This document shows, piece after piece, positions 3 to 3,673 of a stretch of DNA of 5,138 bases (positions within the stretch are counted from its first letter, which is position 1; every line of letters begins with the position of its first letter). Both the position numbers and the translations under genes were made by a program. The notes below the pieces were generated by a model. The model saw nothing but the letters and a program-made list of their open reading frames with translations, was not told the origin of the DNA and made no database searches. Location of the stretch: contig JAGGRU010000309.1 of NCBI GenBank assembly GCA_021159425.1, forward strand, positions 1 through 5,138. Reading direction: 5' to 3'. This DNA comes from Sulfurovum sp. Lineage in GTDB: Bacteria > Campylobacterota > Campylobacteria > Campylobacterales > Sulfurovaceae.

Positions 3-92
3 ATTGTAAATAGAAATGAAGATTTAGTGAGTATCATCGCTGTGCTGCAGGATGTCACTCAGAAGATGCTTGGGTTTAGGTGCGAAAGTTAA
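3..92 (+). CDS. C-terminal end of an unidentified protein (5' end outside the window)
   Basis: The third frame is open from the window start to TAA at 90-92, giving 29 residues that end in KMLGFRCES. The other two plus frames stop within the first 13 bases, so this is the only candidate on this strand. The segment SIIAVLQDVTQ resembles the last strand of a PAS/PAC sensor domain, where 'G.LQDIT' endings are common, but the fragment is too short to assign a family. A hairpin follows 24 bases after the stop, consistent with the end of a transcription unit. The gene would converge with the small peptide gene at 149-232. Confidence is moderate that it is coding and low for any function. Confidence 0.5.
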   Translation: MVNRNEDLVSIIAVLQDVTQKMLGFRCES

Positions 93-103
93 GAGACTTA
101 TTT

Positions 104-138
104 AAAAAAAGCGCCCACCGATAGTTACTGCTATCGGT
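104..138 (-). terminator. Intrinsic terminator of the small-peptide mRNA
   Basis: Positions 117-138 form a perfect 8-bp stem (ACCGATAG / CTATCGGT) around a 6-nt loop. Read on the minus strand it is followed by GGGCGC and seven T residues (A-run at 104-110), and it begins 10 bases after the stop codon of the 27-residue peptide. On the plus strand a short T4 run at 143-146 could make it partly bidirectional and end the truncated gene at 3-92. On the minus strand the loop reads CAGTAA, which is exactly complementary to the loop of the hairpin at 338-353 in the upstream small RNA. Confidence 0.8.
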
Positions 139-148
139 AGACTTTTGA

Positions 149-232
149 CTAATGCTTAAACAGATGCATTAAATAATACACTGCTAAAAACAAATAACCA
201 ATAAATGCGATGACATCATTAAAACTATTCAT
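149..232 (-). CDS. 27-residue hydrophobic peptide, candidate type I toxin
   Basis: ATG at 232-230 runs to TAG at 151-149 and encodes 27 residues. The peptide has a short polar N-terminus (MNSFND), one hydrophobic stretch of about 17 residues (VIAFIGYLFLAVYYLM) and a basic C-terminus (HLFKH). This is the usual plan of membrane-acting type I toxins such as TisB and Fst, although I recognise no specific family. The start is set by a strong AGGAG at 245-241 with 8-nt spacing. An in-frame ATG at 250-248 would give 33 residues but would place that ribosome site inside the coding region. A dedicated terminator follows 10 bases after the stop, and the upstream small RNA is complementary to the ribosome site, start codon and codons 7-11. 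It could instead be a harmless small membrane protein under antisense control. Toxicity is inference. Confidence 0.72.
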   Translation of the reverse strand: MNSFNDVIAFIGYLFLAVYYLMHLFKH

Positions 233-245
233 AAGGCTCGCTCCT
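202..245 (-). promoter_or_regulatory. Antisense target region on the peptide mRNA (SD, start codon, early codons)
   Basis: Four blocks on this mRNA match the complement of the small RNA: AGGAG 245-241 with 356-360, GAGCC 239-235 with 361-365, ATGAATA 232-226 with 366-372, and GTCATCGCATTTA 214-202 with 378-390. The last two blocks are perfect. The first two each differ by a single G/A change, which becomes a G-U pair in RNA. A 1-nt bulge, a 2-nt bulge and an 11/5-nt internal loop separate the blocks. A duplex here would cover the ribosome binding site and initiation codon, so translation should be blocked. Confidence 0.7.
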
Positions 246-256
246 TTCATAGAGCC
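235..256 (-). promoter_or_regulatory. Leader hairpin presenting the Shine-Dalgarno of the small peptide
   Basis: On the minus strand GGCTC (256-252) and GAGCC (239-235) form a 5-bp stem around a 12-nt loop that contains AGGAG. A shifted pairing of GCTC with the GAGC formed by the end of AGGAG would instead bury part of the ribosome site. The leader may therefore switch between open and closed forms. The small RNA pairs with both the loop and the 3' side of this stem. Confidence 0.45.
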
Positions 257-284
257 ATCCCACCATCTACCCTAAAATTACGCC

Positions 285-326
285 AAAAAAAAAGCCCTGC
301 ACCTCAATAAAGAGATACAGAGCTTT
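285..326 (-). terminator. Strong intrinsic terminator of the small RNA and of tkt readthrough
   Basis: The arms 291-305 and 312-326 form a 15-bp stem with a 6-nt loop, followed on the minus strand by nine T residues (A-run 285-293). On the plus strand the stem has three C-A mismatches (296/321, 300/317, 302/315). On the minus strand these become G-U pairs, so the hairpin is intact only in minus-strand RNA. This shows it serves minus-strand transcription. An alternative 5-bp hairpin, AGAGC/GCTCT at 333-319, overlaps the 5' arm and could compete with it. Confidence 0.85.
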
Positions 327-337
327 AGGCTCTAAAC

Positions 338-353
338 GCTAGCAGTAACTAAC
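338..353 (-). other. Kissing-loop hairpin inside the small RNA
   Basis: Read on the minus strand, GTTAG (353-349) and CTAGC (342-338) pair with one G-U, leaving the 6-nt loop TTACTG (348-343). The mRNA terminator hairpin at 117-138 has the loop CAGTAA, its perfect complement. Identity in the inverted sense extends to 12 bases (340-351 against 123-134), so a kissing contact could grow into the stems. Confidence 0.65.
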
Positions 354-397
354 TTAGAAGAAGCCATGAATATAAACGTCATCGCATTTACATTTGG

Positions 398-403
398 ATT
401 ATA
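398..403 (-). promoter_or_regulatory. -10 box for the small RNA
   Basis: The minus strand reads TATAAT, a perfect sigma-70 -10 box, 24 bases beyond the tkt stop codon. No good -35 box lies 16-18 bp upstream; that stretch is simply AT-rich, as is common in Campylobacterota promoters. The expected start, near 391, falls immediately before the 13-nt antisense block at 390-378. Confidence 0.6.
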
Positions 404-426
404 AGACATAATGCCTTAAATAAATA

Positions 427-2415
427 TTAAAGTTCACACTCTCCCAGATCCACTTCTCTATACTCCACATCCATTAATTTACAAGCACGTTTCATGATAC
501 CTTCTTTGGTAAATCCAAACTTCTCAAAGAGTAAGTCTGCCGGAGCTGATGCTCCGAAGCTTTCCATGCCTAGAACATCATCTGCATATCTGTAGAATTC
601 TGTGGCTGTGGCTGCTTCAACTGCCAATACTTTTGTATTAGGATCAACAACTGTTGCTTTGTACTCTGCATCCTGTTCATTGAAGAGGTCAAGACATGGT
701 ACAGAGACAACATTTGCAACGATACCAAGTGGCTTAAGATAACATGCTGCTTTAAGACAAGGCATCAACTCTGAACCTGAAGCCATGAGTGTAAAGTTTG
801 CATCTTTTCTTTTTTTGACGATGTATGCACCTTTGCTTACTTCTCCAAAATCTCTTTTTGGTTTAAGTGTTTTAAGTTTTTGTCTAGAGAGAACAAAACC
901 GTGTGGTGCCTGAATAGTCAGTGCTGTTTTCCATGCTTCCACATTTTCTGTTGCATCTGCCGGTCTCCATACATAGAAGTTCGGTAATGCTCTAAACTGA
1001 GAAATTTGCTCGATCGGCTCATGTGTCGGACCATCTTCACCTACACCGATACTGTCGTGTGTCCAGACAAAGAAGTTTTGTATGCTTGTCAATGCTGCAA
1101 TACGTACAGAAGGCTTCTGATAATCAGAGAAAACAAAGAACGTTGCATTGAACGGGATAGTTGTACCGTAAAGTGCCATTGCATTGGTGATCGCTGCCAT
1201 AGAGTGTTCTCTGATACCAAAGTGAATGTTTCTTCCTTTAGGGAAGTTACCCAACTCTTTAAGGTCTGTTTTGTTTGATGGTGCAAGGTCCGCTGAACCA
1301 CCCAAAAATGATGGAATAGCTGTTGCAATGGCATTAAGGATCTTACCGTTTGAATCTCTTGTAGCTACTTCCGGAGCCTCTGAGAAATCAGGATATTGGA
1401 TCGTTGAGAAATCAGGGTTAAGCAATCTATCTAAAGCCTCATTCTGCTCTAAAAGCGGTGCCTCTTTTTGTCTGTGGATCCACTCTTTTTCAGCTAAGTC
1501 ACCGTTTTCAAGTGCACATCTGAATCTTAGAAGTACATCTTCAGGAATGTGGAATGTCTGCTCAGGATCAAAACCTTCTTTTACTTTAGATTCAGCAATG
1601 ATCTTGTCTCCAAGAGGTGCACCATGAGTATGGTGTGTCCCCTCAAGCTCACCAGCACCTTTACCGATGATCGTATTGGCAATGATGATAGTCGGTTTCG
1701 TAGCAGACTTTACATCTTCGAGTGCTTTTTCAATATCATCATAACAGTGACCATTGATCTTCACTACATTCCAGTTCTGTGCCTCAAAACGTTTTTCAAC
1801 ATCTTCAGACCAGGCAATGCTTGTGTCACCCTCGATCGTAATATGATTAGAGTCATAAATAAGCACCATATCTTTAAGACCTAAGTGTCCCGCCAAAGCA
1901 CAGGCCTCATAAGAGATTCCCTCTTGCAAGTCACCATCACCACAAAGACAATAGACTTTATGGTCTATAAGTTCACATGTCTCTGAGTTTACCTGGTTTG
2001 CCGTGTAGGTTTCAGCCATTGCAAAACCAACAGCATTAGCAATACCTTGCCCAAGTGGTCCAGTCGTGATCTCTATACCATCTGTGTGACCAGACTCCGG
2101 ATGACCCGGTGTTTTAGAGTCTAGTTGACGGAAGTTTTTCAAGTCATCAAGACTCAGGTCATATCCCCAAAGGTGAAGCAGTGAGTAGATAAGTGCAGAA
2201 GCATGCCCACCTGAAAATACCAAACGGTCACGGTTGAGCCATTTTGGGTTTTTAGGATTATGGCTGAGTTTTTCAGAAAGTACAACTGCGATATCTGCAA
2301 GTCCCATTGGTGCACCCGGGTGTCCTGAGTTTGCTTTTTGTACCATATCGGCAGCCAAAAATCTGATCGTATTCGCCATCTTTTTACGCATTGTATTTTG
2401 CTCTGTCATTGCCAT
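427..2415 (-). CDS. tkt: Transketolase
   Basis: Transketolase (EC 2.2.1.1) moves two-carbon ketol units between sugar phosphates in the non-oxidative pentose phosphate pathway, or the Calvin-type reverse direction, using thiamine diphosphate and a divalent metal in the cytoplasm. The 662 residues match the usual full length. Visible motifs are SGHPGAPMG (residues 30-38, His32), GGHAS (His71), the thiamine-binding signature GDGDLQEG (159-166) ending at Asn190, THGAPLG (263-269), GIREH with the catalytic Glu403, THDSIGVGEDGPTHEP (452-467) and LSRQ (Arg511). AAAGGA lies about 8 nt before ATG 2415 and favours it over the internal ATG at 2409. The gene follows ispA after 11 bases, and its ribosome site shares bases with the ispA stop codon, so translation is probably coupled. 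Readthrough should end at the terminator at 285-326. Confidence 0.97.
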   Translation of the reverse strand: MAMTEQNTMRKKMANTIRFLAADMVQKANSGHPGAPMGLADIAVVLSEKLSHNPKNPKWLNRDRLVFSGGHASALIYSLLHLWGYDLSLDDLKNFRQLDSKTPGHPESGHTDGIEITTGPLGQGIANAVGFAMAETYTANQVNSETCELIDHKVYCLCGDGDLQEGISYEACALAGHLGLKDMVLIYDSNHITIEGDTSIAWSEDVEKRFEAQNWNVVKINGHCYDDIEKALEDVKSATKPTIIIANTIIGKGAGELEGTHHTHGAPLGDKIIAESKVKEGFDPEQTFHIPEDVLLRFRCALENGDLAEKEWIHRQKEAPLLEQNEALDRLLNPDFSTIQYPDFSEAPEVATRDSNGKILNAIATAIPSFLGGSADLAPSNKTDLKELGNFPKGRNIHFGIREHSMAAITNAMALYGTTIPFNATFFVFSDYQKPSVRIAALTSIQNFFVWTHDSIGVGEDGPTHEPIEQISQFRALPNFYVWRPADATENVEAWKTALTIQAPHGFVLSRQKLKTLKPKRDFGEVSKGAYIVKKRKDANFTLMASGSELMPCLKAACYLKPLGIVANVVSVPCLDLFNEQDAEYKATVVDPNTKVLAVEAATATEFYRYADDVLGMESFGASAPADLLFEKFGFTKEGIMKRACKLMDVEYREVDLGECEL

Positions 2416-3342: not shown

Positions 3343-3564
3343 ATGGAAAAAGCACAACAAGAAACTATTATTTTATGGCTCAAAAGAGTCGCTGCCATTA
3401 TAACAATTATTGTTTGGGGATATCTTATGGCAATATTTCTAAAAGATCCTACCCCATTTGCAGAACCGACACCCTATTACACGGGAAGTGCCCTGCTCAT
3501 ATTTGCTGTGTTAACAGGAGTTTTTAAAGGTTTAGAGTATTGGAAACAACAAATAAACATGTAG
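3343..3564 (+). CDS. Small two-helix membrane protein of unknown function
   Basis: The gene encodes 73 residues that I do not recognise as a named family. An amphipathic N-terminus (MEKAQQE) leads into a first hydrophobic segment around residues 15-33 (VAAIITIIVWGYLMAIFL). A proline-rich linker follows (KDPTPFAEPTPYY), then a second hydrophobic segment around 48-62 (SALLIFAVLTGVF) and a polar tail. This predicts an inner-membrane hairpin. The ribosome site AGGA at 3327-3330 is 12 nt from the ATG, which is rather far. It is divergent from ispA across 67 bases. The stop codon TAG (3562-3564) is part of the GTAG foot of the first REP-like palindrome, so the natural C-terminus may have been trimmed or extended when the repeat arrived. 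Confidence 0.75.
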   Translation: MEKAQQETIILWLKRVAAIITIIVWGYLMAIFLKDPTPFAEPTPYYTGSALLIFAVLTGVFKGLEYWKQQINM

Positions 3565-3586
3565 GTCGGAGTGCCCTCACCCCGAC
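3561..3586 (+). repeat. REP-like palindrome with GTAG foot (first of an inverted pair)
   Basis: A GTAG tetranucleotide (3561-3564) is followed by GTCGGAGTG, the loop CCCT, and CACCCCGAC; the stem is 9 bp with one mismatch. GTAG at the 5' foot of a GC-rich hairpin is the hallmark of REP elements mobilised by RAYT (TnpA-REP) transposases. The sequence is 23/26 identical to the reverse complement of 3628-3653 and much more GC-rich than its surroundings. Confidence 0.7.
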
Positions 3587-3627
3587 ATTATCGACAATCA
3601 CAAATAAATATTGGATATAAAGTTCAC

Positions 3628-3653
3628 GTCGGGGTGGGGACACCCCGACCTAC
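3628..3653 (-). repeat. REP-like palindrome, inverted partner
   Basis: A perfect 9-bp stem GTCGGGGTG / CACCCCGAC with the loop GGGA ends in CTAC, so on the minus strand it starts with GTAG. Together with 3561-3586 it makes a head-to-head pair separated by 41 AT-rich bases, like a BIME. The pair can also fold into one 26-bp stem. It lies between convergent genes, where it could end transcription from both sides. Confidence 0.72.
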
Positions 3654-3673
3654 AACAGAAAACAGTTAAAAGC

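What the first reader, a model, noticed from the sequence alone, without database searches (positions are those of the whole stretch)
104..410. Candidate new type I toxin-antitoxin locus downstream of tkt
Seen: a 27-residue single-helix peptide gene with strong AGGAG and its own terminator, directly preceded on the same strand by a self-contained small RNA unit (TATAAT, about 105 nt, terminator) that carries two separate stretches complementary to the peptide mRNA. Known: Fst of pAD1, TisB/IstR-1 and ZorO/OrzO pair a small hydrophobic toxin with a short RNA; the Campylobacterota examples I know (AapA/IsoA, CjpT/CjrA) use fully overlapping antisense RNAs. Inferred: this tandem, non-overlapping layout would be a different type in this phylum.
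Basis: partly seen in the sequence, partly recalled or inferred. Interest (0 to 1): 0.92.

Follow-up and report, generated by a model that had tools for sequence, protein, structure and literature searches.

The report
Tandem RNA-guarded toxin-like peptide genes
Next to a sugar-metabolism gene of a Sulfurovum-like bacterium lies the reading frame of a 27-residue water-repelling peptide, preceded on the same strand by a predicted small RNA whose sequence is complementary to both ends of the peptide's predicted message and so would likely keep it switched off, and the same layout recurs with some 70 different peptides in related bacteria, which suggests a widespread and perhaps undescribed kind of toxin-antitoxin pair.

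Summary
On the minus strand, a predicted sRNA (about 391-286) precedes a 27-aa hydrophobic ORF (232-149). The sRNA is complementary to the ribosome-binding/start region (34 bp) and to the tip of the hairpin after the ORF (12 nt). Ten homologous units were found. In nine aligned ones 13 of 37 inter-RNA pairs change on both sides; in all ten, cognate duplexes are on average stronger than swapped ones. The frame is under purifying selection (pN/pS 0.37 in nine units); the tenth has an internal stop. A model of the core without the sRNA's antisense part found the same layout with 72 distinct hydrophobic frames, one truncated, in six family groups of the class; FREEIR-type peptides also occur on Campylobacter plasmids. 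Upstream RNAs match their own message (at least 9 nt perfect in 54 of 72; 6.3% of non-cognate pairs). Best reading: type I toxin-antitoxin modules with Fst-like two-site pairing in a tandem layout. Transcripts, toxicity and the toxin promoter are untested. No description was seen in the search listings, but the library lacks most subscription papers.

The parts
398..403 (-). -10 box TATAAT of the predicted sRNA
   Evidence: Read; TATAAT or TATACT in all nine aligned units and in the tenth.
286..391 (-). Predicted antitoxin sRNA (about 105 nt): 5' hairpin, middle hairpin with segment B at its tip, terminator
   Evidence: Similar fold predicted for all 10 units, L031 with one more hairpin; transcription not tested.
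355..391 (-). Antisense segment A, complementary to Shine-Dalgarno, start codon and first codons of the peptide
   Evidence: 34 bp in the window; cognate mean -38.9 against non-cognate -24.5 kcal/mol in ten units.
340..351 (-). Kissing segment B (TAGTTACTGCTA)
   Evidence: 100% of cells paired with B' in nine units, three positions with double changes.
328..332 (-). Segment C (GAGCC), can pair with 256-252; also part of the stem below the B hairpin
   Evidence: 78.6% of cells paired; weak energy signal.
285..326 (-). sRNA terminator hairpin and T9 run (293-285)
   Evidence: T-run exactly 9 in 61 of 72 loci of the wider set.
257..284 (-). Near-invariant G-rich, C-poor leader (promoter or 5' UTR of the peptide message; role unproven)
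   Evidence: Alignment of nine units; shared character in the wider set.
252..256 (-). Segment C' (GGCTC), can pair with sRNA C; can also form a hairpin over the Shine-Dalgarno
   Evidence: hairpin read from sequence.
241..245 (-). Shine-Dalgarno AGGAG
   Evidence: AAGGTG instead in L028b, L027, L052.
200..246 (-). Segment A' on the peptide message, target of A
149..232 (-). 27-aa hydrophobic peptide ORF (toxin candidate)
   Evidence: frame kept in nine of ten homologous units, pN/pS 0.37 in those nine.
113..142 (-). 3' hairpin whose tip B' (133-122) pairs with sRNA segment B
   Evidence: strong T-run only in the window.
104..110 (-). T-run after the 3' hairpin
   Evidence: not conserved.
427..2415 (-). 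Transketolase gene (tkt) upstream of the unit; context only
   Evidence: Pfam PF00456, PF02779, PF22613.

Best explanation
This is most likely a type I toxin-antitoxin module in which a predicted 105-nt RNA would bind the message of a 27-residue hydrophobic, likely membrane-damaging, peptide at two separate sites and keep it untranslated. Shown from sequence: the tandem order on one strand, the complementarity to the start region and to the 3' hairpin tip, the matched changes in related units, and the constrained peptide frame. Inferred: segment B of the sRNA first kisses the tip of the message's 3' hairpin; segment A then pairs over the Shine-Dalgarno, start codon and first codons, blocks the ribosome and probably invites RNase III; loss of a short-lived RNA would let a more stable message make the peptide, which would insert in the inner membrane. 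The logic is that of Fst/par of pAD1, but the antisense segments sit as inverted copies in an RNA gene placed upstream on the same strand. The same chassis appears to carry at least three kinds of hydrophobic peptide across the class, and each RNA mostly fits its own message best.
For: Nine aligned units: 92.1% of cells in 37 inter-RNA pairs are standard pairs (shuffles 84.2%), 13 pairs with double changes (shuffles 7.0), 29 double-changed cells (10.4); slid controls pair in only 33-56%. Ten units: cognate A duplex mean -38.9 against -24.5 kcal/mol, 0 of 100000 permutations as low, 8 of 100000 with 8 representatives; B -18.2 against -13.8, 0 and 14 of 100000. L052 has the same segment A as L028b but a changed B with the matching change in its partner. 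pN/pS 0.37 (nine units). Across 72 loci with distinct hydrophobic frames: perfect match of at least 9 nt to the start region in 54 of 72 against 6.3% of non-cognate pairs, at least 11 nt in 36 of 72 against 0.6%; to the 3' region at least 9 nt in 30 of 72 against 4.4%; 0 of 20000 permutations each. Between units of the same genome: at least 9 nt in 29 of 36 cognate against 4 of 48 non-cognate. Eleven model hits in ten genomes of other phyla: 0 of 11 had such an ORF. Copies in tandem, decayed copies and plasmid copies fit an addiction-type module.
Against: No transcript, half-life or toxicity was measured. No consensus promoter was found for the peptide message, so independent transcription is unproven. 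L052 keeps the pairing with a broken frame. Cognate partners are not always best: row-best in 7 of 10 for A and for B, 1 of 10 for C. Contact C is weak (78.6% paired; 376 of 100000 permutations), and one of five covariation measures was not above shuffles (further pair types, 124 of 500). In the wider set 18 of 72 loci lack a perfect match of 9 nt in the start region and 42 of 72 in the 3' region; whole-region duplex energy reached z of -2 or lower in only 38 of 72. One Campylobacter concisus genome gave no R2 hit.
Confidence: 0.8

Rival explanations
1. Cis-acting leader: one promoter (the TATAAT at 403-398) makes a terminated leader RNA, and the peptide is made only from read-through; segments A and B then pair within the same read-through RNA. 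The ratio would be set by the T9 terminator, much as the order of parts in type III toxin-antitoxin loci suggests.
For: A -10-like hexamer lies upstream of the terminator in 58 of 72 loci (34% of mononucleotide shuffles hold one), but no consensus promoter is seen before the window's peptide; the terminator T-run is strikingly constant (exactly 9 in 61 of 72); type III loci place RNA, terminator and toxin in that order (PMC4147584, passages).
Against: The leader after T9 is the most conserved stretch of the unit, as a second promoter would be, and the upstream RNA is predicted to fold on its own into stable hairpins. Pairing in cis does not exclude pairing in trans, so this rival and the best explanation can both be partly right.
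Confidence: 0.3
2. The peptide is not a toxin but a small regulatory membrane protein whose translation is tuned by a neighbouring trans-acting sRNA.
For: Toxicity was not tested; many small hydrophobic peptides are harmless regulators (general knowledge); the RNA evidence says nothing about the peptide's effect.
Against: Several units per genome whose RNAs mostly do not cross, decayed copies, dissimilar peptides on one chassis and plasmid copies are the usual signature of toxin-antitoxin modules rather than of a house-keeping regulator.
Confidence: 0.15
3. Already described: the Campylobacter FREEIR-type members could be the CjpT/CjrA pair named by the first reader, and the Sulfurovum unit would then be a distant member of a known type I system.
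For: FREEIR-type peptides do lie on Campylobacter plasmids, 19 of 21 typed as conjugative (three regions read).
Against: The library lacks most subscription papers, so this cannot be excluded.
Confidence: 0.2
4. Chance open frame and chance complementarity in an intergenic region.
For: The ORF is short and the sequence AT-rich.
Against: and the outside controls.
Confidence: 0.01

Closest known systems
Fst / par of plasmid pAD1 (RNA I / RNA II)
   Same: Small peptide toxin (33 aa) and an antitoxin RNA with two separated contacts, one over the translation start and one kissing the loop of the 3' terminator (PMC7472228, passages).
   Different: par is convergent with a shared bidirectional terminator and direct repeats; here the RNA gene is upstream on the same strand, has its own terminator, and complementarity comes from inverted copies. 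The peptide matched no Pfam family above its cut-off; only a sub-threshold DUF2933 match was listed.
AapA/IsoA (Helicobacter pylori, same phylum)
   Same: Type I logic, 30-aa peptide, antisense RNA of 80 nt (AapA3/IsoA3), hairpins that sequester the Shine-Dalgarno (PMC6733600, passages).
   Different: IsoA3 lies on the opposite strand of the ORF; here RNA and ORF do not overlap and lie in tandem.
TisB/IstR-1, ZorO/OrzO, ShoB/OhsC, DinQ/AgrB (E. coli)
   Same: RNA antitoxin not encoded opposite its small toxin gene.
   Different: Divergent genes whose RNAs bind the long 5' UTR and do not overlap the start (PMC4147584, passages); here they are tandem and the start region is covered.
Type III systems (ToxIN class)
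   Same: RNA antitoxin, terminator and toxin gene in that order (PMC4147584, passages).
   Different: Type III RNAs are tandem repeats and their toxins are predicted RNases; here the RNA matches the message, no tandem repeat is found, and the product looks like a single hydrophobic helix.
CjpT/CjrA
   Different: Said to be fully overlapping; could not be checked.

Membership tests
Type I toxin-antitoxin system | Small hydrophobic peptide ORF with a ribosome-binding site | tested here: met
   ORF 232-149 with AGGAG; constrained (pN/pS 0.37 in nine units).
Type I toxin-antitoxin system | Partner RNA complementary to the toxin message | tested here: met
Type I toxin-antitoxin system | The RNA is transcribed and represses the message | not testable with these tools
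   Needs RNA-seq and reporter assays.
Type I toxin-antitoxin system | The peptide is toxic when made alone | not testable with these tools
   Needs expression assays.
Fst/par of pAD1 | Convergent genes sharing a bidirectional terminator | tested here: not met
   Both units lie on the minus strand with separate hairpins.
Fst/par of pAD1 | Two contacts: translation start and 3' hairpin loop | tested here: met
   Segments A and B, by sequence; mechanism alike, not membership.
Fst/par of pAD1 | Fst-family peptide sequence | tested here: inconclusive
   No Pfam family above its cut-off; 27 aa gives little power.
AapA/IsoA | Antisense RNA on the opposite strand of the ORF | tested here: inconclusive
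   The predicted RNA gene lies upstream on the same strand and no consensus promoter is seen on the opposite strand, but the consensus scan also misses the sRNA's own promoter, so an opposite-strand RNA is not excluded.
Type III (ToxIN) | Antitoxin RNA made of tandem repeats | tested here: not met
   No tandem repeat in 100-420 at score 30 or more.
Hol_Tox (PF16935) | Match to the Pfam model | tested here: not met
   0 of 21 genomes including the window's own; controls ring in Bacillus subtilis and Lactococcus lactis.
Any Rfam family | Match of the RNA to a covariance model | tested here: not met
   Window at gathering score, 60-460 at E up to 1, ten related loci at gathering score: no match.

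The most novel reading that the evidence does not exclude
One ancient tandem chassis (RNA antitoxin, T9 terminator, G-rich leader, hydrophobic peptide, kissing 3' hairpin) is a major type I toxin-antitoxin platform of the class Campylobacteria: it accepts unrelated toxin peptides, and each copy evolves its own RNA address so that several units in one cell do not cross-talk.
Probability: 0.6. Interest if true: 0.87.

Novelty: new variant of a known kind. Interest (0 to 1): 0.8.

Why it matters
If true, a class of bacteria that includes Campylobacter and important chemosynthesisers of vents and seeps carries a widespread toxin-antitoxin layout that annotation tends to miss, because peptides of 20-30 residues and their RNAs are seldom called (18 of 21 plasmid places carry no listed feature, in an incomplete gene table). 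The naturally matched pairs in single genomes make a direct test of how RNA-RNA specificity evolves, and the tandem layout raises a clear question: is the RNA-to-toxin ratio set by two promoters or by read-through of a nine-T terminator?

Tried and rejected
Blastn of the unit against plasmids and phages: no match. Tblastn of a FREEIR-type peptide in phages: no match. Tblastn of a composite of two short peptides in plasmids: no match. Pfam on the peptide: only sub-threshold DUF2933. Hol_Tox in 21 genomes: none. Rfam: none. Weak R1 hits such as L082, L084, L085 and L086 looked like coding sequence by eye and were set aside as chance. R2 hits by E-value, model loci left out: hydrophobic ORF in 15 of 18 (below 1e-9), 17 of 20 (1e-9 to 1e-6), 20 of 33 (1e-6 to 1e-4), 7 of 39 (1e-4 and worse), so weak hits are mostly plain terminators. 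A conserved upstream leader peptide starting at the ATG in GATGG was considered and rejected, because its frame and length differ between the aligned units (my reading; no separate run). Sigma-54 spacing in the leader was considered and rejected as not constant (reading). Rows left out: 127 places from the two R2 hit lists were examined; other listed places, largely partial, terminator-only or weak, were not. Of the 127, 44 gave no usable ORF and three no T-run, and eight more fell to the filters for hydrophobicity, length and distinctness, leaving 72. The 72 include one truncated frame (L096, the unit of L052) and some doubtful ORF choices by the script (for example L154, whose frame runs on, and L192); ORFs were chosen partly by hydrophobicity.

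Full report
Observation. Of seven named records that carry the same unit, five are titled Sulfurovum sp. and two bear broader names. On the minus strand, after the transketolase gene (427-2415; Pfam), the order is: TATAAT (403-398), a predicted RNA from about 391, a terminator hairpin 326-291 with nine T (293-285), a G-rich leader (284-257), AGGAG (245-241), a 27-codon ORF (232-149) and a hairpin 142-113. The scan found three terminator-like sites, two of them overlapping, against 0.3 expected. It found no two-hexamer promoter for either RNA.

Pairing in the window. Segment A of the RNA (391-355) makes 34 base pairs with the message from the Shine-Dalgarno to about codon 10. Segment B (351-340) is complementary over 12 nt to the tip of the 3' hairpin (133-122). 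Segment C (332-328) can pair with 256-252. The RNA is predicted to fold into a 5' hairpin, a middle hairpin with B at its tip, and the terminator, in all ten units examined, L031 with one hairpin more.

Homologous units. A DNA search of 60 relatives gave matches in nine genomes, the window's own and two short chance-like matches included. A pattern scan of 78 genomes of the genus gave 6 with the exact leader motif, the own one included. A scan of genome contigs gave 18 stretches, of which 11 were chance or other contexts by eye. The sequence model R1 found nine full-length units in 7 of 78 genus genomes. With L027 this makes ten units. Nine have an intact frame; L052 has an in-frame stop. Seven of the ten lie downstream of tkt and three elsewhere (tkt ends recognised by eye from the window's), and one contig carries two units in tandem. 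Remnants without the peptide exist (L041/L054, L009/L055).

Matched changes. On the nine-sequence alignment A1, 37 inter-RNA pairs were written as a pseudoknotted structure: 92.1% of cells are paired (shuffles 84.2%), 13 pairs have changes on both sides (7.0) and 29 cells do (10.4); one measure, further pair types, is not above shuffles (124 of 500). Slid versions pair in 33-56%. B is paired in 100% of cells, C in 78.6%. Part of the excess for A may follow from the pairs having been chosen on these sequences. Swapping partners in ten units: A, cognate mean -38.9 against -24.5 kcal/mol (0 of 100000 permutations; 8 of 100000 with eight representatives); B, -18.2 against -13.8 (0 and 14); C, -7.8 against -6.3 (376). 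Cognate was row-best in 7 of 10 for A and for B and in 1 of 10 for C, so close relatives can cross-pair. The three window-type units of genome G021 are each best with their own partner for A (3 of 3), with n too small for a permutation test. The frame has pN/pS 0.37 over the last 20 codons, stop included in the count of codons, of nine units.

Wider class. R1 hits outside the genus, and weak ones inside it, showed other hydrophobic peptides after the same kind of terminator and leader. A covariance model R2 was built from 12 such cores (terminator to start codon; the antisense part of the upstream RNA is not in it). It hit 50 of 78 genus genomes at E up to 0.1 and 97 of 397 class genomes at E up to 0.01, in 33 of 68 genera; many of the weak ones are plain terminators. 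Most fall in three kinds: LFREEIR-like (31 by a motif count), about 20-residue peptides with short ends such as -LY or -LH (26), both, and the AFIGYLFLAVYYLMHLFKH kind with its likenesses. The pairing, which played no part in finding them, holds: the upstream RNA matches its own message by at least 9 nt perfect in the start region in 54 of 72 (non-cognate 6.3%), at least 11 nt in 36 of 72 (0.6%), in the 3' region at least 9 nt in 30 of 72 (4.4%), 0 of 20000 permutations each; without the seven of the window's own kind it is 47 of 65. Within the same genome it is 29 of 36 cognate against 4 of 48 non-cognate. Whole-region duplex energy was less telling (z of -2 or lower in 38 of 72). Outside the phylum, ten genomes of other groups, which had come in through a chance match to the leader pattern, gave 11 R2 hits at E 1.5e-5 to 0.0076, and 0 of 11 had a hydrophobic ORF; hits of similar E in the class had one in 20 of 33 (1e-6 to 1e-4) and 7 of 39 (worse than 1e-4). 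One Campylobacter concisus genome gave no R2 hit (G599).

Plasmids. A FREEIR-type peptide matched 21 plasmid records, all Campylobacter, 19 of them typed conjugative; 18 places bear no listed feature and three a hypothetical protein, in a gene table that is incomplete by its own description. I read three: L221 lies between a virB8-type gene and trbL, L222 beside trbL, and L220, on a plasmid typed non-mobilizable, between two hypothetical genes. In all three the same tandem order and both complementary stretches, with some G-U pairs, are visible by eye. That f13 is Campylobacteraceae is my inference from this match.

Common anatomy. The T-run is exactly nine in 61 of 72 loci (51 of 60 not used in the model), followed by G in 70 of 72, then a C-poor leader with four or more GG runs in 60 of 72; the distance from T-run to start codon is 51.2 +/- 5.7 nt. 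The model was trained mostly on T9, so some bias is likely. A -10-like hexamer lies upstream of the terminator in 58 of 72; 34% of mononucleotide shuffles hold one. I cannot say whether the leader is the toxin promoter, a read-through leader or an RNA structure.

Mechanism. I commit to antisense repression in trans by two-site binding: loop contact at B, then sealing of the start region by A. The nearest mechanism is par of pAD1, where terminator loops kiss and DRa/DRb cover the start (PMC7472228, passages). The layout differs from par, from the opposite-strand AapA3/IsoA3 (PMC6733600, passages) and from the divergent E. coli loci (PMC4147584, passages); it resembles the RNA-terminator-toxin order of type III (same paper). 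A cis-acting read-through version is the main rival and may act together with it.

Literature. Searches on type I systems with Campylobacter, Epsilonproteobacteria, Helicobacter AapA, Sulfurovum, CjpT/CjrA, T1TAdb and tandem layouts listed no paper whose title or shown start of abstract describes this layout; some lists were cut (for example 10 of 81 papers, 30 of 80, 15 of 157). I read only passages of five papers. The library lacks most subscription journals, so 'not described' is limited to those listings.

Noticed in passing
window 285-293 and the 72 loci: The sRNA terminator's T-run is exactly nine long in 61 of 72 loci, followed by a C-poor leader rich in GG runs; unexplained, and partly open to model bias.
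   Followed up: partly
G000:C202 (L121) and G000:C37 (L120): The window's own genome holds at least one more unit with another kind of peptide (MLQIRVLAILILLVCLSVRLY) and the start of a third, cut by a contig end.
   Followed up: partly
L221 and L222 (Campylobacter plasmids); also L220: FREEIR-type units with the tandem RNA lie between virB8-type and trbL genes (L221) or beside trbL (L222); L220 lies between hypothetical genes. No CDS is listed at the peptide in these three.
   Followed up: partly
L024, L028, L031 downstream of the unit: An ORF resembling the end of an XRE-type helix-turn-helix regulator lies convergent to three of the units (judged by eye, no family search).
   Followed up: no
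window about 57-109 (+), L002 and L011: The sequence beside the unit (end of a frame ...LQDVTQKMLGFRCES) recurs at another place in this genome and in another genome.
   Followed up: no
window 3560-3654: An inverted repeat (27-nt arms, 89% complementary, 41 nt apart) with GTAGGTCGG ends follows the small ORF at 3343-3564, like a dispersed intergenic repeat.
   Followed up: partly
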